DNA of 64,000 nt from Opisthocomus hoazin (lineage: Eukaryota > Chordata > Aves > Opisthocomiformes > Opisthocomidae): the NCBI RefSeq assembly GCF_030867145.1, contig NC_134429.1, forward strand, positions 17,086,615 to 17,150,614, written 5' to 3'. The notes under the pieces are model-generated. The model was not told the DNA's origin. It did not search any database and saw only the letters and a list, made by a program, of their open reading frames with translations. Positions 546-64,000 of this stretch are shown piece after piece; the first letter of the stretch is position 1, and every line of letters starts with the position of its first letter. The translations under genes and the position numbers were made by a program.

Positions 546-3500
546 TGAGATGCTACTACTGTGACATTGCTTGCATTGGGGTAATACTCTCACCATCTGA
601 TGCCGGATGGCATCAAATATGTATACAGCATGATTAGATAAAATTATGTATGCATTTATCTCCATAACAATCCTTAACATCACAAGCACAAGTATCATCA
701 TTAGCATTAATCAATCTTTTGTTTATTGCTCTCGGAAACCAAGTAGAATGAAATGTACTCATCTCTGGTGGGGTTTGGGTTTTTTTTACATTGTTGTAGT
801 TCAGTTTTCCAAGGCTGCTTTTTAAAGCAGCTGCTGACTTCTGGTCTTCATCTTCCAGAAAAATCGACAGTTTGATTTCAGGACTGATGCTATGAAGCAT
901 GGATATAAGATTAACAGTCACTGGGGTCCATTCTAGTTAATTAATTAAATTAAGCCTCTGTTTCCTACCTCTTTAGTGCCCACGGAAATGCCATAGAATC
1001 TGAGGAAGAATTAAGTTGCAAGTATATTATAGGAGCTGGATATGGAATCATGTGGCCAGGAGAAAAGTACATCTCCAGCCTGCTGGACTGATATTGAAAT
1101 AAAAAATAATATTAATTTAATTGTGTGTCCTGCAGAAATGAGACTCCTCAGTTGCATAAGGAAAATTACAAGATATTTAGTGGTGGCTGTTTTATTCTCT
1201 GGCTTTTCTTTTCCAATTGAGAAAAAAATATTATCAAAGGAGGTTTCAGAAGATCTGTTTCTTAGAAGATTGTTCATTCTTGTCTCTCATGGTTTTAGTT
1301 TATGCTCTGCAAAACTTAATTTGGGGGAAAGTCTCGTGTTCCAGGTCATTAGATGGTGGTTTTTAGTTACCAGCTAAGTCCCTGGGCTTTTTTTGTGTGT
1401 GTGTGTGTCTGTATCACCTATGGATCTAAAGTTTTTGTTTTGCTTTCAGTGTAATCATATATACATATATATCAAAGTATGCTCTTGTAACTTCATCTGC
1501 ACAAGAACAGCTGCACTTACGGCCAGAAATTCCTGTCCTTGGACCCTGGACTCTGGAGAGTGAGCTTGCTTTATGATCTGATTTGTTATTTCCCTAACTT
1601 TCAATCTCTGTTATCAGTCTCCATGCAATAACAAGGTAATGATTGCAGCAGATGCCTCAGCTGACAGGAATATGGTTTTGTGAGTGTCATGGGAACAGGT
1701 CTGCACTTCATTCACTGGTGGCCTCTCCACTGGTGGTGATTATGCACTGCCTCTCAGAAGCACAAAACAACTCTTTCGCATCAGAGGGAGGTGGATTGCC
1801 TATCAGACATTAACACAGTAAAATAACAACCTCACCTTCAAAACCACCATCTTACCCACGGGATTCTTCCAAACAGTGCCATCACAATGTAGTCCACCTG
1901 AGGAAAGAAGGTACTAACCAGTTTGTTGAAAAACATTGTGGAAGTGGGGATGGTTTTGGTCAAGACACTTGGAAAGCCATCTGATGCATAAAGAAAAGTG
2001 AAAGAATGGGGCAAGTGTACAGTGTTGTTCCTGTGATAATTCTGAAAACAGAGTGTGCAGTTTGCTCAGTAGCCCGCCATGGACTTTTCAAGAGCTTTTT
2101 CATTCTTTCTTAAAACTCATGCAAATATTTGCCATCTGTTACTGCATGTGACAAGGAGGTCCACAGCTTAATTATCCCTTGCAGGAAGAGATAAACCCTT
2201 TTGCTTGTGTTCTGAACAGGCAACTCTGTAGTTTCATGTGGTGCTTCCTAGTTCTTATGTTACAAGTTTGACATTGAGGAATTAAATCCTATCAGCCTTC
2301 TCCATACTGCTCTTTACTTTTCCTCCCTCTTTTCCATACACCTTGGTCTTCTCTGTTCCAGGATGATGAGTCTTTTTGTTAATCGCTTTCAGAATTGCAG
2401 TACTGCTAGTAGGAAGGAGTCTCCGATCCAGCCTCATGCTTAGAACAGGACAATCACCAACACTAGATCAGGGAAGTCACGGCTTTGCCTAGGTGTATCT
2501 TGGAAAAATTCAAAGTCCACCAATTCACCACTGCTCTGTTAATATGTCCCAAGGCTGCACCACCTTGCTGACATACTTTCATTGCTATTTTTCCTTTAAA
2601 AGTCAGCAAACATGGATGCTACCTAAGACTTGTTGCTTACTCTAAATCTTATCTTTTATCTAGACCACAGTGTCACCTGTTGCAACATAAAGCCAAAGTC
2701 AGAAATATCTCCTTGCTTCATCAGTTTCTTCATCAGTCACCCTGTATCAGCTGACATTTGTATCTCTAGACTGTAAAAAGTTCCTCTCTGTACAGTTCTC
2801 TAGCTCTGTTTTATCCAATTTATTAGGCATATTGATGGTATTCACCTATCAAAACAAAAAGAAAGGTGGATTATAGGGAAAGAGTTCTAAGACTTACTTG
2901 AAGTTTGGACACCTTACCTTAAGAATCTGTCTTTCATTTACTCATGAGAATATTATAATGTCAAGAGTTTTCATTGGGAGATATTTCTAACAGGTGAGTT
3001 TTCTTCAAAGTTTCAGGAAAAAAGTAAATATTTGGTGAATGGCCAAAAATTAATCTAAGCTTATTTATTCTATAAAGAATATGAACAAAAGAAGGCAACT
3101 CGCTGTACTTAGGACACTGAAAGACATCTTTGTACTCTTACAATACTTCACATTGGAAAAATTGATCATGGATCAAGGAATGCTGCTAGTTTAAATGAGA
3201 TTTAAACTTCTCTTTTGCAGCACTGCACTTCGGGCATAAGTTTTTCTGGAGAGGGGAGTGGCTGGGAAATGCTCCTGCTTCATCTTTGCGTAATCTGGGA
3301 GGCCACGTAGAAGGTCAGACGAGTAGAAGCAATCTCTTAATGGGCCTTTGTTCACCCCATAATTTTTTGACTATTCTGGTTCATTTCACCAGGAAAAGGT
3401 CTCACTGATGAGCTCCTATGTATTGCCTCAAAATCAAAGGGAAACAGAAAAAACAGAATTTATGTGTGAACCAAGTCTGTGGGGAAGTTTCAGAGTAAAT

Positions 3501-42521: not shown

Positions 42522-42601
42522 TTTCCCTTTCCCTTTCCCTTTCCCTTTCCCTTTCCCTTTCCCTTTCCCTTTCCCTTTCCCTTTCCCTTTCCCTTTCCCT
42601 T
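42522..42601 (+). repeat. (CCCTTT)n hexanucleotide tract
   Basis: About 13 uninterrupted CCCTTT units in 80 bases, directly abutting the truncated CR1. It is not telomeric repeat. The alternating Lys-Gly frame it creates on the minus strand is not a gene. Confidence 0.95.
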
Positions 42602-43333: not shown

Positions 43334-43967
43334 CCCATCTCTGGGAGATATCTCAGCAGAGTCTCAGGTTGATTACGGAGCACACAGATTACTCGAGAAG
43401 GGAAAAATCATCTCAGGTAGCTGTCCTGGAGGAGTCTGCAGTTGCTACCTGGGATATTATGTCTCTAAAACAGGGGTCAAAAGAATTTGGGAGATACCTG
43501 GGAGGAGTCTCGGGTGGATCCCAGAGGAGACAGTGTCCTCGAAAAGAGAAAAATCATCTTGGGCAGCTGCCTTGGAGGAGTCTGAGGCTGCTACCTGGAA
43601 TGTCAGGTTGCGAAAGCAGAGGTGGAAAGACTCTGGGAAATTTCTCAGCAGAGTCTCAGGCTGATTACGGAGCACACAGATTCCTCGAGAAGGGAAAAAT
43701 CATCTCGGGTAGCTGCCCTGGAGGAGTCTGGGGTTGCTACGCAGGACATTCTGTCTCTAAAACAGAGGACAAAAGACTTCAGGAGATGCCTGGGAGGAGT
43801 CTCAAATGGATCTGGAAGAAGACACTTTCCTCTAAAAGAGAAAAATCTCCTTGGGTAGCTGCCTTGGAGGAGTCAGAGGCTGCTACCTGGGATGCCAGGT
43901 TGCGAAAGCAGAGGCGGAAAGACTCTTGGAGATTTCTCAGTGGAGTCTCAGGCTGATTACGGAGCAC
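43334..43967 (+). repeat. Satellite outpost, about 4.3 monomers of 146 bp
   Basis: The same repeat family and orientation as the large array starting at 49108. Monomers alternate strictly between class B (gtcaggttgcgaaagcagag / tctcagcagagtctcagg) and class A (attctgtctctaaaa / gggaggagtctcgggtgga). It begins around 'tctctgggagatatctcagc' and stops abruptly inside a B monomer at 'ggagcaca'. Confidence 0.93.
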
Positions 43968-44579
43968 ATTTGTGCGCAGGGGGTCACTGGCACCTGCTTT
44001 TCACGTACACATCTGTCACCCTTCCCACTGGCAGACCAACGGCAAGTGGTACTGGTTTGCTCTGGTGACGAGTCCGTCCAGTCCAGTGGTGGTGGGTTTT
44101 TTTCATAAGGAACCACCAGTCACATGCAGTTCTGGGGGTGCTACGAACCACTAGTCCACTTTCTTGAATTCTGCCTTATATCTCCTTCCCTTCTCTTTGG
44201 CTTCATCTGCACCCTTATTACTCTTCAAGCAGTGGCATCCTTCTCTTTTGAGGTTGCGGCTCCTTTTCCATTCTGCGCTTCCTTTTACAATTTCCTCCTA
44301 AGTTCCCAGGTTTTGATCTACCAGTGCTCTAAAATGTTCATCTTCAAGCCACCGATGTCGCTCCGTATTGTAAATGTGACCCCCTGTCCTGGGGATAACT
44401 GTATGCTTTACCATTTTGCAGGACTGAAACTTCATTTCCCCTCCTTGATAATTTTTTTCATTAAGAGGCAGCCTAGGACCTGAGTGGGAGGAGAAGTGTT
44501 GATTAGGAACAGCAGTGTACGCTGTTCTTTCTGCTTTCGCTGTGGCAGTGGACATCATGGAAGCAAGAAAAAGGAATGA

Positions 44580-48060: not shown

Positions 48061-49107
48061 GAAAAGGTAGCCTGTCATACCTGGACATGTTGAGCCTAAC
48101 TGAAAAGCTGACATTAAAACTGCATTTATTCCTTTTAATGTTTAGAAATCTTGTTAAAACTCCTCTGAGTTTGATTTGGCTTACACTACCTGGAGCTAAT
48201 AATACTCCATTCTGGACAGTGAAAACTGCTCTGTCAAGTGAAAGTGGTGTATCTTCCTGTCTCTTGCATGAGAGACAACAAATCCGATCCACAGGTGTGT
48301 TCTTAAAATGGGTTCAATATGAGACACTCGCTGCTCACAAGCAAGCAAGAGATGCACAAGAATAACTGCAAGTGGACTACAAGAAAATACCCATGCTTGA
48401 TCTTCTTTCTTTGACACTGGAAAGCACAGAGAACTTCAATATTATCAACAGAATGCACAGGATCCTGATTGCATCTCTAGTTGCAAGCTGGTCACCTTGA
48501 ACCACGCAAACAGGCGCAGAATTTTTTGTCCTTTTTATTTTCAGTCATTTGCATTTCCTGGCTCTCCGAAAATGCTGTTCCAGGTCTGAAATGGTTTGGC
48601 AGCAAACATTATGCATAAATTTCTATGGAAAAGAATGTTTTCTGTTTTTCTTCTCCTTAAGTGTCAATTATTTTCATGAACTTGATCATTTTTCTCAAAA
48701 GCTACGTTTTGTACTTAGTAGAGAGAGTTGTGATTCTGAAAATTGATTGACAAAAAAAGTCCACAAGCTAAGAAAGGGTAATCCTGTACTCAGCGCTGCT
48801 AAATTCTTCCAAGCTGATGCCATGGGGAGGGATATAGGCCTGCCTAATCTTTAGCGTGTTTACAGTATTTTCCTAGGGGGGGGTTCCTAAACTTATTTAC
48901 TCACTTCAGGTCAGAAATTACTACTCAGACGTTTCCCTATGTTGTCAATATTTACCTCTATTTTCCTACTTTCAGTACTTGGAAGATGTTCTTATGCCAA
49001 GCTCTGCAGAAGGCTTTTCCTAGAAGGCACAATCGGTTGATTTAACGAATCCCTAACTATGATAATGATTTCAAAATTGTGCCTGCTGCTCTGAGGCTGG
49101 ATTTGAT
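48061..49107. other. No gene recognised, satellite flank
   Basis: Unassigned sequence between the ZC3H11A-like fragment and the main satellite array. No further exon of that gene could be supported. Confidence 0.45.
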
Positions 49108-52100
49108 ATTGGAGATACATGGGAGGAGTCTCAGGTGGATCCCGGAGGACAAAGTGTCCTCCATAAGGGAAAAATCATCTCGGGTAGCTGCCCTGGAGGG
49201 GTCTGGGGCTAATACGTGGAAGTATGGTGCTTAAAACAAAGGACAAAAGACTCTAGGACACGCCTGGGAGGAGTCTCAGGTGGATCCAGGAGAAGACACT
49301 TTCCTCAAAAGAGAAAAATCATCTCGGGTAGCTGCCCTGGAGGAGTCTGGGGCTGTTACCCGGGATATTCTGCATCTAAAAGAGAAGGCAAAACTCCAGG
49401 ATATACCTGGGAGGAGTCTCAGGTGGATCCAGAAGAAGACACTAGATCCAAAAAAGGAAAATCATCTCGGGTAGCTGCCTTGGAGGAATCTGGGGCTGCT
49501 ACCTGGATCTATGGTGCTTACAACAGAGGTAAAAGATTCTAGGAGATGCCTGGGAGGAGTCTCAGGTGGATCCCGGAGGAGACAGTGTCCTCCAAAAGAG
49601 AAAAATCACCTCGAGTAGCTGGCTTGGAGGAGTTTGGGGCTGCTAGCTGGAATGTCAGGTTGCAAAAGCAGAGGTGCAAAGACTCTGAGAGATTCCTCGG
49701 AGGATTCTCAGGCTCATTATGGAGCAACACAGATTCCCTAAGAAGGGAAAAATCATCTTGGGTAGCTGCCCTGGAGGAGTCTGGGGCTGCTACCTGGGAT
49801 GTCAGGTTGCAAAAGAAGAAGTGCAAGGACTCTGGGAGATTTCTCAGCAGAGTCTAAGGTTGATTAAGGACCACACAGATTCCTTGAGAAGGGAAAAATC
49901 ACCTCGGGTAGCTGCCCTGGAGGAGTCTGGCGTTGCTACCTGGGATATTATGTCTCTAAAACCGGGGGCAAAATACTCCGCGAGACAGCTGGGAGGAGTC
50001 TCAGGTGGGTCTTCGAGTAGACGCTGTCCTCTAAAAGAGAAAAATCGCCTCAGGTAGCTGACACGGAGGAGTCTAGGGTTGCTATCTGGGATGTCAGGTT
50101 GCAAAAGCAGAGGTGGAAAGACTCTGGGAAATTTCTCAGTGGAGTGTCAGGCTGATGACGGAGCACACAGATTCCTCGAGAAGGGAAAAATCATCTCGGG
50201 TAGCTACCCTGAAGTAGTCTGGGGTTGTTACCCGGGATATTCGGTCTCCGAAAGAGAAGAAAATGACTAATGGAGACACCTGGGAAGAGTCTCGGGTGGA
50301 TCCCGGAGGAGACAGTGTCCTCCAAAAGAGAAAAATCATCTCGGGCAGCTGCCCTGGTAGAGTCTAAGTCTGCTACATGGAATATCAGGATGTGGAAGCC
50401 GAGGTGGAAAGACTCTGGGAGATTTCTCAGCAGAGTCTAAGGTTGATTAAGGAGCGCACAGATTTCTTGAGAAGGGAAAAATCATCTCGGGAAGCTGCCC
50501 TGGAGGAGTCTGGTGTTGCTACCAGGGATATTCTGTATCTTTTAGAGGGGGCAAAAGTCTCCAGGAGACACCTAGGAGGAGTCTCGGGTAGATCCTGGAG
50601 GAGACACTGTCCTCCACAAGATAAAAGAATTATCGGGTCGCTGCCTTGGAATAGACTGAGACTGCTACCTGGGATGTCAGGTGCTGGAAGCTGAGGTGGA
50701 AAGACTCTGGGAGAATTTATCAACAGAGTGTCAGGATGACTGCGGAGCACACAAATTCCTAGAGAAGCGAAAAATCATCTTGGGTAGCTGCCCTGGAGGA
50801 GTCTGGGGTTGCTACCCAGGACATTCTATCTTTATAAGAGAGGATAAAAGACTCCAGGAGATACCTGCGAGGAGTCTCGGGTGTAATCCCGGAGGAGAGA
50901 GTGTCCTCCAAAAGAGAAAAATCACCTCTGGTAGCTGCCTGGGAGGAGTCTGGGGTTGCTACCTGGAATATTCTGTCTCTAAAAGAGAAGGTAAAATACT
51001 CCGGGAGATACCTGGGAGGAGTCTCAGGTGGATCTTCGAGTAGACGCTGTCCTCTAAAAGAGAAATATCACCTCAGGTAGCTGACGTGGAGGAGTCTGGG
51101 TTGCTACCTGGGATGTCAGCATGTGGAAACAGAGGTGCAAAGACTCTGGGAGATTTCTCAGCAGAGTCTAAGGTTGATTAAGGAGCAAACAGATTTCTTG
51201 AGAAGGGAAAAATCGTCTCAGGAAGCTGCCCTGGAGGAGTCTGGTGTTGCAACCCGGGATATTTTGTCTCTAAAAGAGAAGGCAAAATACTCCGGGAGAT
51301 ACCTGGGAGGAGTCTCAGGTGGATCTTCGAGTAGACGTTGTCCTCTAAAAGGGAAAAATCACGTCAGGTAGCTGACCTGGACGCATCTGGGGTTGCTACC
51401 TTGGACATTCTGTCTCTAAAAGAGAGGGCAGAAGACTCCAGGAGACACCTGGGAGGAGTCTTGGGTGGATCCTGGAGGAGATAGTGTCCTTCAAAAGAGA
51501 AAAGTCTTCTCGGGTAGCTGCCTTGGAGTAGACTGAGACTGCTACCTGGGATGTCTTCTGGTAGAAGCTGAGGTGGAAAGACTCTGGGATAATTTATCAA
51601 TAGAGTGTCAGGATGACTGCGGAGCACACAAATTCCTCGAGAAGGGAAAATCATCTTGGGTAGCTGCCCTGGAGGAGTCTGGGGTTTCTACCCGTGACAT
51701 TCTGTCTCTAAAAGAGAGGGCAGAAGACTCCAGGAGATACCTGCGAGGAGTCTCGGGTGTAATCCCGGAGGAGAGAGTGTCCTCCAAAAGAGAAAAATCA
51801 CCTCTGGTAGCTGCCTGGGAGGAGTCTTGGGTTGCTACCCGGAATATTCTGTCTCTAAAAGAGAAGGTAAAATACTCCGGGAGATACCTGGGAGGAATCT
51901 CAGGTGGATCTTCGAGTAGACGCTGTCCTCTAAAAGAGAAATATCACCTCAGGTAGCTGACGTGGAGGAGTCTGGGTTGCTACCTGGGATGTCAGCATGT
52001 GGAAACAGAGGTGCAAAGACTCTGGGAGATTTCTCAGCAGAGTCTCAGGTTGATTAAGGAGCACACAGATTCCTCAAGAAGAGAAAAATCATCTCGGGTA

Positions 52101-53987
52101 GCTACCCTGGAGGAGTCTGGCGTTGCTACCCGGGGTGTTCTGTCTCTAAAACAGGGGACAAAAGAATCTGGGAGATACCTGGGAGGAATCTCGGTTGGAT
52201 CATGGAGGAGACAGTGTCGTACAAAAGAGAAAAATCATGTCAGGTAGCTGCCTTGGAGGAGTCTGGTGTTGCTACCAGGGATATTCTGTATCTTTTAGAG
52301 GGGGCAAAAGTCTCCAGGAGACAGCTAGGAGGAGTCTCGGGTAGATCCTGGAGGAGACACTGTCCTCCACAAGATAAAAATCATCTCGGGTAGCTGCCTT
52401 GGAGGAGTCTGAGACTGCTACCTGGGATGTCTGGTGCTGGAAGCAGCGGTGCAAAGACTCTGGGAGATTTTTAAGCAGAGTCTCATGCTGATTACTGAAC
52501 ACACAGTTTTCTTGAGAAGAGAAAAATCATATTCAGTAGCTGCCCTGGGGGAATCTGAGGCTGCTACCCGGGATGTTCTGTCTTTAAAAAGGAGACAAAA
52601 GAGTCTGGGAGATACCTGGGAGGAGTCTCAGGGTCATCCCGGAGGAGACAGTGTCCTTCAAAAGAGAAAAATCATCTCTGTCAGCTGCCCTGGAGGAGTC
52701 TGGTGTTGGTACCCCGGACATTCTGTATCTAAAAGATAGGGCAAAAGACTACAGGAGACAAATGGCAGGAATCTCGGGTGGATCCTGGTGTAGACAGTGT
52801 CTTCCAAAAGAGAAAAATTATCACGGGTAGCTGCCCTGATAAGTCTGAGGCTGCTACCTGGGATGTCTGGTGCTGGAAGCAGCGGTGCAAAGACTCTTGG
52901 AGATTTTTCAGCAGAGTCTCAGGTTGATTAAGGTGCACTCAGATTCCTCGAGAAGGGAAAATCATCTTCGGTAGCTGCCTTGGAGGAGTCTGGGGTTGCT
53001 ACCTGCGACATTCTGTCTCCAAAAGAGAGGACAAAATACTCCGGGAGACACCTGGGAGGAGTCTCGGGTGTATCCTGGAGGAGACAGTGTCCTCCAAAGG
53101 AGAAAAATCATCTCGGGGAGCTGCCTTGGAGGAGTCTGGGGTTGCTACCTGCGACATTCTGTCTCCAAAAGAGAGGACAAAATACTCCGGGAGACACCTG
53201 GGAGGATTCTCGGGTGGATCCTGGAGGAGACAATGTCCTCTAAAAGATAAAAATCATCTCGCGTAGCTGCCTTGGAGGAGTCTGCGTTTGCTAACCAGGA
53301 TATTCTGTGTCTAAAACGGGACAAAAAACCAGGGAGATACCTGGGAGGAGTCTCGGGTGGATCCCAGAGAAGATAGCGTCCTCCAAATGAGAAGAACCGT
53401 CTTGGGTAACTGCTCTGGTTAAGTCTAATTCTGCTACCTGGGATGTCAGGATGTGGAAACAGAGGTGCAAAGACTCTGGGAGATTTCTCAGCAGAGTCTA
53501 AGGTTGATTAAGGAGCAAACAGATTTCTTGAGAAGGGAAAAATCGTCTCGGGAAGCTGCCATGGAGGAGTCTGGTGTTGCAACCCGGGATATTCTGTCTC
53601 TAAAAGAGAAGGCAAAATACTCCGGGAGATACCTGGGAGGAGTCTCAGGTGGATCTTCGAGTAGACGCTGTCCTCTAAAAGAGAAAAATCACCTCGGGTA
53701 GCTGACCTGGACGCATCTGGGGTTGTTACCTTGGACATTCTGTCTCTAAAAGAGAGGGCAGAAGACTCCAGGAGACACCTGGGAGGAGTCTTGGGTGGGT
53801 CCTGGAGGAGATAGTGTCCTTCAAAAGAGAAAAGTCTTCTCGGGTAGCTGCCTTGGAGTAGACTGAGACTGCTACCTGGGATGTCTTCTGGTAGAAGCTG
53901 AGGTGGAAAGACTCTGGGATAATTTATCAACAGAGTGTCAGGATGACTGCGGAGCACACAAATTCCTCGAGAAGGGAAAATCATCTT
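49108..53987 (+). repeat. Satellite array, diverged patchwork part
   Basis: About 33 tandem monomers of roughly 146 bp, all in plus orientation, of class A, class B and an A variant ending 'ggatcttcgagtagacgctg'. No single higher-order period covers it. Long blocks recur at multiples of the monomer: 51115-51800 matches 53445-54130 (offset 2,330, 16 monomers), 50915-51170 matches 51793-52045 (about 877, 6 monomers), and 49830-50340 matches 54350-54860 (about 4,521, 31 monomers). This looks like the older, partly homogenised edge of the array. Confidence 0.93.
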
Positions 53988-56900
53988 GGGTAGCTGACCT
54001 GGACGCATCTGGGGTTGCTACCTTGGACATTCTGTCTCTAAAAGAGAGGGCAGAAGACTCCAGGAGACACCTGCGAGGAGTCTCGGGTGTAATCCCGGAG
54101 GAGAGAGTGTCCTCCAAAAGAGAAAAATCACCTCTGGTAGCTGCCTTGGAGGAGTCTGGGGTTGCTACCTGGGACATTCTGTCTCTGAAAGAGAGGACAA
54201 AATACTCCAGGAGACACCATGGAGGAGTCTCGGGTGGATCCCAGTGGAGACAGTGTCCTCCAAAAGAGAAAAATCACCTCCGGTATCTGACCTGGAGGAG
54301 TCTGGGGCTGCTACCTGGGATGTCAGGTTGCAAAAGAAGAAGTGCAAGGACTCTGGGAGATTTCTCAGCAGAGTCTAAGGTTGATTAAGGACCACACAGA
54401 TTCCTTGAGAAGGGAAAAATCACCTCGGGTAGCTGCCCTGGAGGAGTCTGGCGTTGCTACCCGGGATATTGTGTCTCTAAAACCGGGGGCAAAATACTCT
54501 GGGAGACACCTGGGAGGAGTCTCAGGTAGGTCTTCGTGTAGACGCTGTCCTCTAAAAGAGAAAAATCGCCTCAGGTAGCTGACGTGGAGGAGTCTAGGGT
54601 TGCTATCTGGGATGTCAGGTTGCAAAAGCAGAGGTGGAAAGACTCTGGGAAATTTCTCAGTGGAGTGTCAGGCTGATGACGGAGCACACAGATTCCTCGA
54701 GAAGGGAAAAATCATCTCGGGTAGCTACCCTGAAGAAGTCTGGGGTTGTTACCCGGGATATTCTGTCTCCGAAAGAGAAGAAAATGACTAATGGAGACAC
54801 CTGGGAAGAGTCTCGGGTGGATCCCGGAGGAGACAGTGTCCTCCAAAAGAGAAAAATCATCTCGGGCAGCTGCGCTGGTAGAGTCTAAGTCTGCTACCTG
54901 GGATGTCAGGTTGCGAAAGCCGAGGTGGAAAGACTCTGGGAGATTTCTCAGCAGAGTCTCAGGTTGACTAAGGAGCACACAGATTCCTTGAGAAGGGAAA
55001 AATCATCTCGGATTGCTGCCCTCGAGGAGTCTGGTGTTGCTACCCGAGACATTCTGTCTCTAAAAGAGAGGGCAGAAGACGCCAGGAGACACCTGGGAGG
55101 ATTCTTGGGTGTATCCTGGAGGAGACAGTGTCCTCCAAAAGAGAAAAGTCATCTCGGGCAGCTGCCTTGGAGGAGTCTAGGGTTGCTACCTGGGATATTC
55201 TGTCTCTTTTAAAAGAGAAGGCAAAATACTCTGGGAGATACCTGGGAGGACTCTCAGGTGGATCTTCGAGTAGACGCTGTCTTCTAAATGAGAAAAATCA
55301 CCTCAGGTAGCTGACCTGGAGGAGTCTGGGGTTGCTACCTGGGATGTCAGGTTGCAAAAGAAGAGGTGGAAAGACTCTGGGAGAATTCTCAGCAGAGTCT
55401 CAGGTTGATTAAGGAGCACACAGATTCCTCAAGAAGAGAAAAATCATCTCGGGTATCTGCCCTGGAGGAGTCTGGGGTTGCTACCAGGGATGTTCTGTCT
55501 CTAAAACAGGGGACAAAAGAATCTGGGAGATACCTGGGAGGAGTCTCGGTTGGATCCTGGAGGAGACAGTATCCTACAAAAGAGAAAGATCACTTCATGT
55601 AGCTGCCTTGGAGGAGTCTGGGCTTGCTACCTGGGATATTCTGTTTCTAAAACAGGGGTTAACAGAGTCTGGGATATACGTGGGAGGAGTCTCGGGTGGG
55701 TCCTGGAGGAGATAGAGTCCTCCAAATGAGAAAAATCAGGTCGGGTAGCTGCCCTGGAGAAGTCTAAGGCTTCTGCCTGGGATACCAGGATGTGGAAGCA
55801 GAGGTGCAAAGACTCTGGGAGATTTCTCAGCAGAGTCTAAGGTTGATTAAGGAGCGCACAGATTTCTTGAGAAGGGAAAAATCATCTCAGGTAGCTGCCT
55901 TGTCAGAGTCTGGGCTTGCTACCTGGGATATTCTGTCTCTAAAACAGGGGTCAAAAGAATCTGGGAGATACCTGGGAGGAGTCTCAGGTGGATCTTCGAG
56001 TAGACGCTGTCCTCTAAAAGAGAAAAATCACCTCGGGTAGCTGACCTGGACGCATCTGGGGTTGCTACCTTGGACATTCTGTCTCTAAAAGAGAGGCCAG
56101 AAGACTCCAGGAGACACCTGCGAGGAGTCTCGGGTGTAATCCCGGAGGAGAGAGTGTCCTCCAAAAGAGAAAAATCACCTCTGGTAGCTGCCTTGGAGGA
56201 GTCTGGGGTTGCTACCTGGGACATTCTGTCTCTGAAAGAGAGGACAAAATACTCCAGGAGACACCATGGAGGAGTCTCGGGTGGATCCCAGTGGAGACAG
56301 TGTCCTCCAAAAGAGAAAAATCACCTCCGGTATCTGACCTGGAGGAGTCTGGGGCTGCTACCTGGGATGTCAGGTTGCAAAAGAAGAAGTGCAAGGACTC
56401 TGGGAGATTTCTCAGCAGAGTCTAAGGTTGATTAAGGACCACACAGATTCCTTGAGAAGGGAAAAATCACCTCGGGTAGCTGCCCTGGAGGAGTCTGGCG
56501 TTGCTACCCGGGATATTGTGTCTCTAAAACCGGGGGCAAAATACTCTGGGAGACACCTGGGAGGAGTCTCAGGTAGGTCTTCGTGTAGACGCTGTCCTCT
56601 AAAAGAGAAAAATCGCCTCAGGTAGCTGACGTGGAGGAGTCTAGGGTTGCTATCTGGGATGTCAGGTTGCAAAAGCAGAGGTGGAAAGACTCTGGGAAAT
56701 TTCTCAGTGGAGTGTCAGGCTGATGACGGAGCACACAGATTCCTCGAGAAGGGAAAAATCATCTCGGGTAGCTACCCTGAAGAAGTCTGGGGTTGTTACC
56801 CGGGATATTCTGTCTCCGAAAGAGAAGAAAATGACTAATGGAGACACCTGGGAAGAGTCTCGGGTGGATCCCGGAGGAGACAGTGTCCTCCAAAAGAGAA

Positions 56901-59900
56901 AAATCATCTCGGGCAGCTGCGCTGGTAGAGTCTAAGTCTGCTACCTGGGATGTCAGGTTGCGAAAGCCGAGGTGGAAAGACTCTGGGAGATTTCTCAGCA
57001 GAGTCTCAGGTTGATTAAGGAGCACACAGATTCCTTGAGAAGGGAAAAATCATCTCGGATTGCTGCCCTCGAGGAGTCTGGTGTTGCTACCCGAGACATT
57101 CTGTCTCTAAAAGAGAGGGCAGAAGACGCCAGGAGACACCTGGGAGGATTCTTGGGTGTATCCTGGAGGAGACAGTGTCCTCCAAAAGAGAAAAGTCATC
57201 TCGGGCAGCTGCCTTGGAGGAGTCTAGGGTTGCTACCTGGGATATTCTGTCTCTTTTAAAAGAGAAGGCAAAATACTCTGGGAGATACCTGGGAGGACTC
57301 TCAGGTGGATCTTCGAGTAGACGCTGTCTTCTAAATGAGAAAAATCACCTCAGGTAGCTGACCTGGAGGAGTCTGGGGTTGCTACCTGGGATGTCAGGTT
57401 GCAAAAGAAGAGGTGGAAAGACTCTGGGAGAATTCTCAGCAGAGTCTCAGGTTGATTAAGGAGCACACAGATTCCTCAAGAAGAGAAAAATCATCTCGGG
57501 TATCTGCCCTGGAGGAGTCTGGGGTTGCTACCAGGGATGTTCTGTCTCTAAAACAGGGGACAAAAGAATCTGGGAGATACCTGGGAGGAGTCTCGGTTGG
57601 ATCCTGGAGGAGACAGTATCCTACAAAAGAGAAAGATCACTTCATGTAGCTGCCTTGGAGGAGTCTGGGCTTGCTACCTGGGATATTCTGTTTCTAAAAC
57701 AGGGGTTAACAGAGTCTGGGATATACGTGGGAGGAGTCTCGGGTGGGTCCTGGAGGAGATAGAGTCCTCCAAATGAGAAAAATCAGGTCGGGTAGCTGCC
57801 CTGGAGAAGTCTAAGGCTTCTGCCTGGGATACCAGGATGTGGAAGCAGAGGTGCAAAGACTCTGGGAGATTTCTCAGCAGAGTCTAAGGTTGATTAAGGA
57901 GCGCACAGATTTCTTGAGAAGGGAAAAATCATCTCAGGTAGCTGCCTTGTCAGAGTCTGGGCTTGCTACCTGGGATATTCTGTCTCTAAAACAGGGGTCA
58001 AAAGAATCTGGGAGATACCTGGGAGGAGTCTCAGGTGGATCTTCGAGTAGACGCTGTCCTCTAAAAGAGAAAAATCACCTCGGGTAGCTGACCTGGACGC
58101 ATCTGGGGTTGCTACCTTGGACATTCTGTCTCTAAAAGAGAGGCCAGAAGACTCCAGGAGACACCTGCGAGGAGTCTCGGGTGTAATCCCGGAGGAGAGA
58201 GTGTCCTCCAAAAGAGAAAAATCACCTCTGGTAGCTGCCTTGGAGGAGTCTGGGGTTGCTACCTGGGACATTCTGTCTCTGAAAGAGAGGACAAAATACT
58301 CCAGGAGACACCATGGAGGAGTCTCGGGTGGATCCCAGTGGAGACAGTGTCCTCCAAAAGAGAAAAATCACCTCCGGTATCTGACCTGGAGGAGTCTGGG
58401 GCTGCTACCTGGGATGTCAGGTTGCAAAAGAAGAAGTGCAAGGACTCTGGGAGATTTCTCAGCAGAGTCTAAGGTTGATTAAGGACCACACAGATTCCTT
58501 GAGAAGGGAAAAATCACCTCGGGTAGCTGCCCTGGAGGAGTCTGGCGTTGCTACCCGGGATATTGTGTCTCTAAAACCGGGGGCAAAATACTCTGGGAGA
58601 CACCTGGGAGGAGTCTCAGGTAGGTCTTCGTGTAGACGCTGTCCTCTAAAAGAGAAAAATCGCCTCAGGTAGCTGACGTGGAGGAGTCTAGGGTTGCTAT
58701 CTGGGATGTCAGGTTGCAAAAGCAGAGGTGGAAAGACTCTGGGAAATTTCTCAGTGGAGTGTCAGGCTGATGACGGAGCACACAGATTCCTCGAGAAGGG
58801 AAAAATCATCTCGGGTAGCTACCCTGAAGAAGTCTGGGGTTGTTACCCGGGATATTCTGTCTCCGAAAGAGAAGAAAATGACTAATGGAGACACCTGGGA
58901 AGAGTCTCGGGTGGATCCCGGAGGAGACAGTGTCCTCCAAAAGAGAAAAATCATCTCGGGCAGCTGCGCTGGTAGAGTCTAAGTCTGCTACCTGGGATGT
59001 CAGGTTGCGAAAGCCGAGGTGGAAAGACTCTGGGAGATTTCTCAGCAGAGTCTCAGGTTGATTAAGGAGCACACAGATTCCTTGAGAAGGGAAAAATCAT
59101 CTCGGATTGCTGCCCTCGAGGAGTCTGGTGTTGCTACCCGAGACATTCTGTCTCTAAAAGAGAGGGCAGAAGACGCCAGGAGACACCTGGGAGGATTCTT
59201 GGGTGTATCCTGGAGGAGACAGTGTCCTCCAAAAGAGAAAAGTCATCTCGGGCAGCTGCCTTGGAGGAGTCTAGGGTTGCTACCTGGGATATTCTGTCTC
59301 TTTTAAAAGAGAAGGCAAAATACTCTGGGAGATACCTGGGAGGACTCTCAGGTGGATCTTCGAGTAGACGCTGTCTTCTAAATGAGAAAAATCACCTCAG
59401 GTAGCTGACCTGGAGGAGTCTGGGGTTGCTACCTGGGATGTCAGGTTGCAAAAGAAGAGGTGGAAAGACTCTGGGAGAATTCTCAGCAGAGTCTCAGGTT
59501 GATTAAGGAGCACACAGATTCCTCAAGAAGAGAAAAATCATCTCGGGTATCTGCCCTGGAGGAGTCTGGGGTTGCTACCAGGGATGTTCTGTCTCTAAAA
59601 CAGGGGACAAAAGAATCTGGGAGATACCTGGGAGGAGTCTCGGTTGGATCCTGGAGGAGACAGTATCCTACAAAAGAGAAAGATCACTTCATGTAGCTGC
59701 CTTGGAGGAGTCTGGGCTTGCTACCTGGGATATTCTGTTTCTAAAACAGGGGTTAACAGAGTCTGGGATATACGTGGGAGGAGTCTCGGGTGGGTCCTGG
59801 AGGAGATAGAGTCCTCCAAATGAGAAAAATCAGGTCGGGTAGCTGCCCTGGAGAAGTCTAAGGCTTCTGCCTGGGATACCAGGATTGGAAGCAGAGGTGC

Positions 59901-62900
59901 AAAGACTCTGGGAGATTTCTCAGCAGAGTCTAAGGTTGATTAAGGAGCGCACAGATTTCTTGAGAAGGGAAAAATCATCTCAGGTAGCTGCCTTGTCAGA
60001 GTCTGGGCTTGCTACCTGGGATATTCTGTCTCTAAAACAGGGGTCAAAAGAATCTGGGAGATACCTGGGAGGAGTCTCAGGTGGATCTTCGAGTAGACGC
60101 TGTCCTCTAAAAGAGAAAAATCACCTCGGGTAGCTGACCTGGACGCATCTGGGGTTGCTACCTTGGACATTCTGTCTCTAAAAGAGAGGGCAGAAGACTC
60201 CAGGAGACACCTGCGAGGAGTCTCGGGTGTAATCCCGGAGGAGAGAGTGTCCTCCAAAAGAGAAAAATCACCTCTGGTAGCTGCCTTGGAGGAGTCTGGG
60301 GTTGCTACCTGGGACATTCTGTCTCTGAAAGAGAGGACAAAATACTCCAGGAGACACCATGGAGGAGTCTCGGGTGGATCCCAGTGGAGACAGTGTCCTC
60401 CAAAAGAGAAAAATCACCTCCGGTATCTGACCTGGAGGAGTCTGGGGCTGCTACCTGGGATGTCAGGTTGCAAAAGAAGAAGTGCAAGGACTCTGGGAGA
60501 TTTCTCAGCAGAGTCTAAGGTTGATTAAGGACCACACAGATTCCTTGAGAAGGGAAAAATCACCTCGGGTAGCTGCCCTGGAGGAGTCTGGCGTTGCTAC
60601 CCGGGATATTGTGTCTCTAAAACCGGGGGCAAAATACTCTGGGAGACACCTGGGAGGAGTCTCAGGTAGGTCTTCGTGTAGACGCTGTCCTCTAAAAGAG
60701 AAAAATCGCCTCAGGTAGCTGACGTGGAGGAGTCTAGGGTTGCTATCTGGGATGTCAGGTTGCAAAAGCAGAGGTGGAAAGACTCTGGGAAATTTCTCAG
60801 TGGAGTGTCAGGCTGATGACGGAGCACACAGATTCCTCGAGAAGGGAAAAATCATCTCGGGTAGCTACCCTGAAGTAGTCTGGGGTTGTTACCCGGGATA
60901 TTCTGTCTCCGAAAGAGAAGAAAATGACTAATGGAGACACCTGGGAAGAGTCTCGGGTGGATCCCGGAGGAGACAGTGTCCTCCAAAAGAGAAAAATCAT
61001 CTCGGGCAGCTGCGCTGGTAGAGTCTAAGTCTGCTACCTGGGATGTCAGGTTGCGAAAGCCGAGGTGGAAAGACTCTGGGAGATTTCTCAGCAGAGTCTC
61101 AGGTTGATTAAGGAGCACACAGATTCCTTGAGAAGGGAAAAATCATCTCGGATTGCTGCCCTCGAGGAGTCTGGTGTTGCTACCCGAGACATTCTGTCTC
61201 TAAAAGAGAGGGCAGAAGACGCCAGGAGACACCTGGGAGGATTCTTGGGTGTATCCTGGAGGAGACAGTGTCCTCCAAAAGAGAAAAGTCATCTCGGGCA
61301 GCTGCCTTGGAGGAGTCTAGGGTTGCTACCTGGGATATTCTGTCTCTTTTAAAAGAGAAGGCAAAATACTCTGGGAGATACCTGGGAGGACTCTCAGGTG
61401 GATCTTCGAGTAGACGCTGTCTTCTAAATGAGAAAAATCACCTCAGGTAGCTGACCTGGAGGAGTCTGGGGTTGCTACCTGGGATGTCAGGTTGCAAAAG
61501 AAGAGGTGGAAAGACTCTGGGAGAATTCTCAGCAGAGTCTCAGGTTGATTAAGGAGCACACAGATTCCTCAAGAAGAGAAAAATCATCTCGGGTATCTGC
61601 CCTGGAGGAGTCTGGGGTTGCTACCAGGGATGTTCTGTCTCTAAAACAGGGGACAAAAGAATCTGGGAGATACCTGGGAGGAGTCTCGGTTGGATCCTGG
61701 AGGAGACAGTATCCTACAAAAGAGAAAGATCACTTCATGTAGCTGCCTTGGAGGAGTCTGGGCTTGCTACCTGGGATATTCTGTTTCTAAAACAGGGATT
61801 AACAGAGTCTGGGATATACGTGGGAGGAGTCTCGGGTGGGTCCTGGAGGAGATAGAGTCCTCCAAATGAGAAAAATCAGGTCGGGTAGCTGCCCTGGAGA
61901 AGTCTAAGGCTTCTGCCTGGGATACCAGGATTGGAAGCAGAGGTGCAAAGACTCTGGGAGATTTCTCAGCAGAGTCTAAGGTTGATTAAGGAGCGCACAG
62001 ATTTCTTGAGAAGGGAAAAATCATCTCAGGTAGCTGCCTTGTCAGAGTCTGGGCTTGCTACCTGGGATATTCTGTCTCTAAAACAGGGGTCAAAAGAATC
62101 TGGGAGATACCTGGGAGGAGTCTCAGGTGGATCTTCGAGTAGACGCTGTCCTCTAAAAGAGAAAAATCACCTCGGGTAGCTGACCTGGACGCATCTGGGG
62201 TTGCTACCTTGGACATTCTGTCTCTAAAAGAGAGGGCAGAAGACTCCAGGAGACACCTGCGAGGAGTCTCGGGTGTAATCCCGGAGGAGAGAGTGTCCTC
62301 CAAAAGAGAAAAATCACCTCTGGTAGCTGCCTTGGAGGAGTCTGGGGTTGCTACCTGGGACATTCTGTCTCTGAAAGAGAGGACAAAATACTCCAGGAGA
62401 CACCATGGAGGAGTCTCGGGTGGATCCCAGTGGAGACAGTGTCCTCCAAAAGAGAAAAATCACCTCCGGTATCTGACCTGGAGGAGTCTGGGGCTGCTAC
62501 CTGGGATGTCAGGTTGCAAAAGAAGAAGTGCAAGGACTCTGGGAGATTTCTCAGCAGAGTCTAAGGTTGATTAAGGACCACACAGATTCCTTGAGAAGGG
62601 AAAAATCACCTCGGGTAGCTGCCCTGGAGGAGTCTGGCGTTGCTACCCGGGATATTGTGTCTCTAAAACCGGGGGCAAAATACTCTGGGAGACACCTGGG
62701 AGGAGTCTCAGGTAGGTCTTCGTGTAGACGCTGTCCTCTAAAAGAGAAAAATCGCCTCAGGTAGCTGACGTGGAGGAGTCTAGGGTTGCTATCTGGGATG
62801 TCAGGTTGCAAAAGCAGAGGTGGAAAGACTCTGGGAAATTTCTCAGTGGAGTGTCAGGCTGATGACGGAGCACACAGATTCCTCGAGAAGGGAAAAATCA

Positions 62901-64000
62901 TCTCGGGTAGCTACCCTGAAGTAGTCTGGGGTTGTTACCCGGGATATTCTGTCTCCGAAAGAGAAGAAAATGACTAATGGAGACACCTGGGAAGAGTCTC
63001 GGGTGGATCCCGGAGGAGACAGTGTCCTCCAAAAGAGAAAAATCATCTCGGGCAGCTGCGCTGGTAGAGTCTAAGTCTGCTACCTGGGATGTCAGGTTGC
63101 GAAAGCCGAGGTGGAAAGACTCTGGGAGATTTCTCAGCAGAGTCTCAGGTTGATTAAGGAGCACACAGATTCCTTGAGAAGGGAAAAATCATCTCGGATT
63201 GCTGCCCTCGAGGAGTCTGGTGTTGCTACCCGAGACATTCTGTCTCTAAAAGAGAGGGCAGAAGACGCCAGGAGACACCTGGGAGGATTCTTGGGTGTAT
63301 CCTGGAGGAGACAGTGTCCTCCAAAAGAGAAAAGTCATCTCGGGCAGCTGCCTTGGAGGAGTCTAGGGTTGCTACCTGGGATATTCTGTCTCTTTTAAAA
63401 GAGAAGGCAAAATACTCTGGGAGATACCTGGGAGGACTCTCAGGTGGATCTTCGAGTAGACGCTGTCTTCTAAATGAGAAAAATCACCTCAGGTAGCTGA
63501 CCTGGAGGAGTCTGGGGTTGCTACCTGGGATGTCAGGTTGCAAAAGAAGAGGTGGAAAGACTCTGGGAGAATTCTCAGCAGAGTCTCAGGTTGATTAAGG
63601 AGCACACAGATTCCTCAAGAAGAGAAAAATCATCTCGGGTATCTGCCCTGGAGGAGTCTGGGGTTGCTACCAGGGATGTTCTGTCTCTAAAACAGGGGAC
63701 AAAAGAATCTGGGAGATACCTGGGAGGAGTCTCGGTTGGATCCTGGAGGAGACAGTATCCTACAAAAGAGAAAGATCACTTCATGTAGCTGCCTTGGAGG
63801 AGTCTGGGCTTGCTACCTGGGATATTCTGTTTCTAAAACAGGGATTAACAGAGTCTGGGATATACGTGGGAGGAGTCTCGGGTGGGTCCTGGAGGAGATA
63901 GAGTCCTCCAAATGAGAAAAATCAGGTCGGGTAGCTGCCCTGGAGAAGTCTAAGGCTTCTGCCTGGGATACCAGGATTGGAAGCAGAGGTGCAAAGACTC
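53988..64000 (+). repeat. Satellite array, 14-mer higher-order repeat of 2,047 bp
   Basis: Copies begin at about 53988, 56035, 58082, 60128 and 62174; the last is cut by the window end. The period is 2,047 bp, then 2,046 bp after a 1-base deletion (ggatgtgg to ggattgg). Each copy holds 14 monomers in the order A A B A' B A B A A' B A A B A'. Monomers within a copy are clearly diverged, whereas equivalent monomers in successive copies are nearly identical; I found only a handful of differing sites. The shared half reads 'aaatcatctcgggtagctgc' and 'ggaggagtctggggttgcta'. Class A then has attctgtctctaaaagag and class B gtcaggttgcaaaagcag. No transcription unit is supported inside; 146 is not a multiple of 3, so frames break at every monomer. 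Confidence 0.96.

What the first reader, a model, noticed from the sequence alone, without database searches (positions are those of the whole stretch)
53988..64000. Recently homogenised 14-mer higher-order repeat satellite of 2,047 bp
The sequence shows 146-bp monomers organised as A A B A' B A B A A' B A A B A' and then repeated almost perfectly 4.9 times. This is the architecture of centromeric alpha satellite, seldom described in birds, where known satellites are mostly simple tandem units. The monomer is close to nucleosome core length. Extending beyond the window, it may be a megabase-scale array. A centromeric or heterochromatic role is inference.
Basis: partly seen in the sequence, partly recalled or inferred. 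Interest (0 to 1): 0.92.

Follow-up and report, generated by a model that had tools for sequence, protein, structure and literature searches.

The report
Satellite with 14-unit higher-order repeats
A short stretch of tandemly repeated, apparently non-coding DNA, probably from a bird, is built of 14 related units copied six times almost perfectly; it lies beside a broken ribosomal gene and about 50 kb from a larger satellite block that is the better centromere candidate, so it is a real but probably secondary piece of chromosome-centre DNA.

Summary
Copies 1-5 differ at 0-4 positions. There are six copies, the last ending about 2.3 kb past the window, inside a longer array of non-HOR 146-bp monomers (49,107 to 3.4 kb past the window; 18.3 kb, 125 segmented monomers).

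The array is not megabase-scale here; it stops directly at a degenerate 45S rDNA unit. About 50 kb further lies a block of about 116 kb of a different, 191-bp satellite, also found on two other long contigs, the better centromere candidate. Most listed matches of the 146-bp family lie on a 4.16-Mb contig (C33), in interrupted arrays over a 0.7-Mb span with other HOR periods. I proposed, then refuted, that the repeat is the rDNA spacer: a higher-scoring rDNA unit has other repeats at that junction.

Best reading: a pericentromeric satellite whose HOR arose by recent local unequal exchange or conversion; CENP-A is untested. HORs at chicken centromeres are already published, so this is a new member of a known kind. 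Bird origin is inferred.

The parts
43339..43968 (+). detached mini-array of 146-bp monomers (4.3 copies), same orientation, in otherwise non-satellite sequence
   Evidence: TRF; BLAST; profile hits; sequence
49107..53987 (+). older, divergent 146-bp monomers (33 segmented), two classes mainly in ABB/AB order, no HOR
   Evidence: abrupt left edge visible
53988..56034 (+). HOR copy 1 (14 monomers, 2,047 bp)
56035..58081 (+). HOR copy 2 (2,047 bp)
58082..60127 (+). HOR copy 3 (2,046 bp)
60128..62173 (+). HOR copy 4 (2,046 bp)
62174..64000 (+). HOR copy 5, cut by the window end (complete in the genome and identical to copy 4); copy 6, 8 divergent monomers and a degenerate 45S rDNA unit follow beyond the window on C16

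Best explanation
A satellite family with a 146-bp monomer (itself probably an old dimer of about 73-bp halves) in two main classes. In this array a 14-monomer block was recently copied into six near-identical tandem copies by unequal sister-chromatid exchange or conversion, inside an older array of diverged monomers that remain on both flanks. It works as passive heterochromatin-type satellite beside the centromere of this chromosome. The centromere itself more likely lies on or at the edge of the 191-bp satellite block about 50 kb further. Shown: the HOR, its diverged flanks, array-specific HOR periods, the neighbours. Inferred: heterochromatin, the mechanism of amplification, the centromere position, bird origin.
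For: HOR and classes. Flanks without HOR on both sides: (33 monomers before and 8 after; lag-14 identity before = 0.714). Half-monomer identity 0.573 against 0.48 for shuffled halves. Other arrays of the family: on C33 a 7,104-bp stretch recurs at lag 8,117 with 98.3% identity (55 monomers), with spacings of 3,056 bp and 1,804 bp; C18 and C32. Three clades, one almost only of C33 pieces, one only of C16 and C18 pieces, one mixed (FastTree, 174 distinct monomers; several deep supports are low). Neighbours: degenerate 45S unit, 54-bp and 28-33-bp arrays, 191-bp block C16:17,205,670-17,321,513, that satellite also on C13, C40, C60, C267, C327 and C220.
Against: No chromatin data of any kind. The centromere of C16 has not been located; that the 191-bp satellite is centromeric is an inference from its block size and its presence on several contigs, and the lengths of C13 and C40 were not seen, so I cannot say whether it is interior there. 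In chicken, CENP-A usually sits at or near the boundary of the satellite cluster, not on its body (PMC9974502 passage), so a large block does not by itself place the kinetochore. The 191-bp block also contains long near-identical repeats (lags 3,041 and 26,031), so HOR-ness does not separate the two satellites. On C33 the 146-bp family spans about 0.7 Mb, which is centromere-sized, though interrupted (5 of 12 probes inside that span positive).
Confidence: 0.68

Rival explanations
1. The 146-bp satellite is itself a centromeric (CENP-A) satellite with chromosome-specific HORs, like alpha satellite; the C16 array is a relic or edge of it and the C33 arrays belong to an active centromere.
For: HOR architecture with different periods in different arrays; about 0.7 Mb span on a 4.16-Mb contig with a strand switch; chicken acrocentric centromeres are 0.2-0.8 Mb long, with HOR satellite (PMC9974502 passages).
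Against: On C16 only 18.3 kb, about 50 kb from a much larger 191-bp block whose satellite recurs on several contigs; on C33 the arrays are interrupted (5 of 12 probes inside the span positive); no CENP-B-box core match in the C16, 191-bp or C33 pieces scanned (a looser pattern hit once in C33; the box is recalled, and the host may not use it).
Confidence: 0.2
2. The repeat is the intergenic-spacer (enhancer-like) repeat of rDNA, lying directly upstream of the 45S promoter.
For: The array ends directly at a 45S unit in the same orientation, about 6.3 kb before its 5.8S gene, where a spacer block could be; ordered repeat tetrads exist in the chicken spacer.
Against: In a unit with a higher-scoring 5.8S (C64) the same 89-bp stretch (98.9%) is preceded by other sequence and a 30-bp repeat, not by the satellite; none of the C64 pieces read matches the satellite (6 pieces, one wholly and one largely masked); with the junction as query only C16 itself spans it among the listed best matches of 710. 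The C16 5.8S scores 133 bits against 141.7 for each of the 40 matches listed on other contigs (40 of 22,903 candidates were scored).
Confidence: 0.03
3. The near-perfect HOR is partly an assembly artefact (copy number wrong, or duplicated path).
For: Copies 4 and 5 are identical and copies 1-3 differ from each other by 1-3 sites; on C33 a 200-N gap is flanked by a 943-bp, 99.6% duplicate, so this assembly does make such errors.
Against: The C16 array is gap-free, its HOR part only 12.3 kb long and bounded on both sides by diverged monomers, so single long reads could span it; copies 1, 2, 3 and 6 carry distinguishing sites.
Confidence: 0.09

Closest known systems
Primate centromeric alpha satellite HORs (171-bp monomer; features recalled)
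   Same: Two or more monomer classes in fixed order, multi-monomer unit amplified at >99% identity, diverged monomeric flanks, array-specific units
   Different: 146-bp monomer; sequences not compared; six copies (12.3 kb) here rather than megabases; centromere role untested; no CENP-B-box core match
Chicken centromeric CNM (41-bp) HORs (PMC9974502)
   Same: Satellite HORs at centromeres of a bird; 26-98 monomers per unit, 5-162 units per cluster (passages)
   Different: Monomer 146 instead of 41 bp; 14 monomers per unit and six units here; CENP-A mapped there, not here
Chicken rDNA spacer Elena repeats (PMC6815422)
   Same: Ordered repeat types (EL2-EL1-EL3-EL3 tetrads) beside 45S units (Results part 1)
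   Different: 92-94 bp, 65-76% GC; here 146 bp and 50% GC; the one rDNA spacer read in this genome (C64) does not carry the 146-bp repeat in the pieces seen
191-bp satellite of the same genome
   Same: Same chromosome, same neighbourhood, also with long-range near-identical blocks
   Different: No BLAST match with the 146-bp repeat in the pieces compared; larger block; listed on more contigs

Membership tests
Higher-order-repeat satellite (class of organisation) | Diverged monomers inside a unit, near-identical units between copies | tested here: met
   0.71-0.78 between monomers, 0.997 at lag 14; permutation control
Higher-order-repeat satellite (class of organisation) | Different arrays carry different units | tested here: met
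   C16 2,046-2,047 bp; C33 8,117, 3,056 and 1,804 bp spacings
Alpha satellite (primate family) | About 171-bp monomer (recalled) | tested here: not met
   Monomers spaced 141-150 bp; no sequence comparison with alpha satellite was made
Centromeric satellite | CENP-A nucleosomes or centromeric FISH | not testable with these tools
   No chromatin or cytogenetic data
Centromeric satellite | Main satellite at one block of most chromosomes | tested here: inconclusive
   146-bp family on C16, C18, C32, C33 in the listed matches; 191-bp satellite on C13, C16, C40, C60, C267, C327 and C220. The searches list only best matches and skip very common words
rDNA intergenic-spacer repeat | Present between tandem 45S units | tested here: not met
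   One unit examined: C64 spacer pieces have a 30-bp repeat and other GC-rich sequence, no 146-bp match; the junction is unique to C16 among listed matches
Chicken CNM satellite | 41-bp monomer | tested here: not met
   TRF periods 146, 438 and 73; no direct sequence comparison made

The most novel reading that the evidence does not exclude
The 146-bp family is an alpha-satellite-like family with array-specific HORs in a bird, in which one small chromosome (C33, in arrays on both strands over about 0.7 Mb) uses it at its centromere while other chromosomes use the 191-bp satellite: two competing centromeric satellites in one genome, with C16 caught carrying both within about 185 kb.
Probability: 0.15. 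Interest if true: 0.65.

Novelty: new member of a known kind. Interest (0 to 1): 0.36.

Why it matters
If the host is a bird, it adds a second kind of monomer (about 146 bp, not 41 bp) to the HOR satellites I found in print for birds. It also gives a gap-free, two-sided example of a young HOR inside its own older monomers, short enough to be spanned by single long reads. The neighbourhood (dead rDNA unit, two satellites) is a good place to test how rDNA fragments and satellites exchange near centromeres. As evidence about centromeres it is weak until CENP-A is mapped.

Tried and rejected
1) rDNA-spacer hypothesis: attractive because the array ends directly at a 45S unit in the right orientation; rejected after reading part of the spacer of one other unit and the junction search. 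2) Coding repeat: stop-to-stop frames in the main array reach 173 aa (211 aa over the mini-array) at the 120-aa cut-off used; 146 is not a multiple of 3 although 2,046 is; not pursued, no protein search was run. 3) CENP-B-box core: 0 matches on either strand in the C16 array, 20 kb of the 191-bp block and 20 kb of C33 (of which about 16 kb is satellite); a looser pattern matched once in C33. 4) Nucleosome phasing by AT dinucleotides: strongest periods 12.2 and 73 bp, 10.4 bp sixth; a repeat's own period dominates such a test. 5) R2-element test with Rfam: only LSU rRNA at E<=1; the insertion is called R2-site only from recalled flanking sequence. Against my reading that this 28S is truncated, the Rfam match spans the whole LSU model; the truncation rests on the recalled 28S sequence and on the 54-bp array starting there. 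6) Sampling other contigs: 0 of 20 probed with 1.5 kb each showed the 146-bp satellite, 1 of 20 (C220) the 191-bp one; 2 of the 20 probes were fully masked. 7) Literature: the listings showed no 146-bp bird satellite with HOR (listings and abstract starts only); three bird satellitome papers searched for the strings 146, 191 and higher-order showed no satellite named by those lengths in the passages displayed (4 of 4, 12 of 13, 8 of 8 places). The library lacks most subscription papers. 8) A first splitting of the HOR copies was wrong and was redone. 9) In one search the C33 seeds mis-split many monomers; I rely there only on the BLAST self-comparison, and on the profile segmentation. Rows dropped before counts: 397 profile hits gave 364 full-length plus-strand ones, collapsed to 174 distinct sequences; 7 weak minus-strand hits were dropped.

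Full report
WHAT WAS CHECKED. The window is C16:17,086,615-17,150,614 of a 1.48-Gb genome in 415 contigs. Its bird origin rests on CR1-like retrotransposon tails among the open frames (recognised by eye from recalled CR1 sequence), genome size and small chromosome-like contigs; it is an inference and no tool named the organism.

THE ARRAY. A 146-bp tandem array starts abruptly at 49,107 after non-satellite sequence and runs, on one strand and without a break, to base 3,411 beyond the window (125 monomers spaced 141-150 bp). Within it, from exactly 53,988 to about 2.26 kb beyond the window, a 14-monomer unit is repeated six times. Mean identity at lag 14 is 0.997 and at lags that are not multiples of 14 is 0.71-0.78; permuting monomer order never gives a best-lag identity above 0.782 against 0.894 observed (200 permutations). 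Unit copies 1-5 differ at 0-4 of 2,049 aligned columns; copies 4 and 5 are identical; copy 6 has 25-26 differences, about half of them in its last 40 columns. Thirty-three monomers before show no such period (lag-14 identity 0.714) and eight after are too few and too diverged for one. This is the layout of a young HOR inside its older monomers.

MONOMER CLASSES. The older flank runs mainly in ABB and AB order. Each monomer is probably an old dimer: its halves are 57% identical on average against 48% (s.d. 3.6) for shuffled halves, and TRF also reports period 73.

THE FAMILY ELSEWHERE. A small array lies about 38 kb from the start of C18, matches lie on C32, and most listed matches are on C33, a 4.16-Mb contig: minus strand at about 2.68-2.80 Mb and plus strand at about 2.96-3.41 Mb (the latter lists only the best of 710 matches). 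The C33 arrays are interrupted: of 15 single 1-2.2-kb probes of C33 other than a masked one, 5 carried the satellite (2,995, 3,002, 3,012, 3,132, 3,282 kb) and 10 did not; inside the 2.68-3.41-Mb span it is 5 of 12, the negatives including three at 2,876, 2,926 and 2,946 kb between the two strand blocks. C33 has its own HORs: a 7,104-bp stretch recurs at lag 8,117 with 98.3% identity (55 monomers), with other spacings of 3,056 and 1,804 bp. In a FastTree of 174 distinct monomers one clade is mixed, one holds only C16 and C18 pieces, and one holds 56 C33 pieces and a single C16 one (several deep supports are low).

THE NEIGHBOURS. Directly after the last monomer comes a 45S rDNA unit (89-bp match to another unit from the very next base): a masked stretch, then ITS1 and 5.8S, then 28S. 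The 28S carries about 1 kb of foreign sequence at what I recall as the R2 insertion site and, by the recalled 28S sequence, stops shortly after, although Rfam aligns it over the whole LSU model. It is followed by a 54-bp tandem array, an LTR-like stretch (by eye) and a 28-33-bp array of about 15 kb. Its 5.8S scores 133 bits against 141.7 for each of the 40 matches listed on other contigs, where neighbouring units lie 22-27 kb apart at the closest; and from the junction to the 5.8S it measures about 6.3 kb against about 7.5 kb on C64. So the C16 unit is probably a degenerate orphon. Further on, C16:17,205,670-17,321,513 is a 191-bp satellite (read continuously to 17,250,614 and sampled beyond). 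That satellite is also listed at 9.7 Mb on C13, 50.1 Mb on C40 (contig lengths not seen), on C60, C267, C327 and C220, making it the better centromere candidate.

THE HYPOTHESIS I HAD AND DROPPED. The array's position and orientation beside a 45S unit suggested a spacer repeat. In the unit on C64 the same 89-bp stretch (98.9% identical) is preceded by about 130 bp of other sequence and then a 30-bp repeat, and the other unmasked spacer pieces are GC-rich repeats or unique sequence without any satellite match. With the junction as query only C16 itself spans both sides among the listed best of 710 matches. The rDNA fragment was therefore probably joined to the satellite on C16 by a breakpoint or insertion. 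Only one other unit was read.

MECHANISM AND STATUS. The simplest account is unequal exchange or conversion amplifying a 14-monomer block six-fold, recently (at most 0.2% difference between copies 1-5). Location near a large second satellite and beside a dead rDNA unit suggests pericentromeric heterochromatin. Whether CENP-A ever sits on the 146-bp repeat is untested. The strongest opposing facts are C33, where the family spans a centromere-sized region, and the chicken finding that CENP-A usually sits at or near the boundary of a satellite cluster.

COMPARISON WITH WHAT IS IN PRINT. Chicken acrocentric centromeres have HORs of the 41-bp CNM repeat, 26-98 monomers per unit, 5-162 units per cluster (PMC9974502; 12 of 16 passages shown). 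The chicken rDNA spacer has ordered repeat tetrads (PMC6815422; abstract, Results part 1, small-unique-region and Discussion sections read); the quail unit was also consulted (PMC11447458; abstract and Results). Three bird satellitome papers (PMC12651973, PMC11375038, PMC10887557) were only searched for strings. No 146-bp HOR satellite of a bird turned up in the listings of the paper searches, which cover open-licence papers only.

VERDICT. Observation confirmed, copy number raised from 4.9 to six; the centromere and megabase claims are not supported for this locus; the claim that HORs are seldom described in birds is out of date at least for chicken. New member of a known kind.

Noticed in passing
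C16 just beyond the window end (L009-L010): A degenerate 45S rDNA unit abuts the array; its 28S carries about 1 kb of foreign sequence at the (recalled) R2 site and seems truncated soon after.
   Followed up: partly
C16:17,205,670-17,321,513 (L014-L019, L047, L050): About 116 kb (sampled) of a 191-bp satellite, with near-identical blocks at lags 3,041 and 26,031 bp in the 45 kb read continuously; also listed on C13, C40 and shorter contigs. Centromere candidate.
   Followed up: partly
C33:2,982,976-2,983,175 (L029): A 200-N gap in the satellite is flanked by a 943-bp, 99.6% duplicate, probably overlapping contig ends joined without merging.
   Followed up: no
L010:8,655 to L012:3,850 (C16): About 15 kb array of 28-33-bp units with CpG observed/expected about 1.0 (measured on L011; window 1-40 kb is 0.18); a short inverted fragment of it lies near the C33 satellite (L031:188-315).
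   Followed up: no
L010:4,788-7,874 (C16): 54-bp tandem array (57 copies, 73% matches) starting right where the 28S seems to be truncated.
   Followed up: no
window 43,339-43,968 and C18:37,517-38,474: Small detached arrays of the same satellite; both lie within 3 kb of a (TTTCCC)n microsatellite (window 42,522-42,601; L024:4,981-5,100).
   Followed up: no
contigs C45, C59, C64, C105 and others: Many 45S units (40 listed 5.8S genes, all at the same score), 22-27 kb apart at the closest; on C64 the spacer has a 30-bp repeat near the promoter side and GC-rich repeats further up (C55 probe: 257-bp period).
   Followed up: partly
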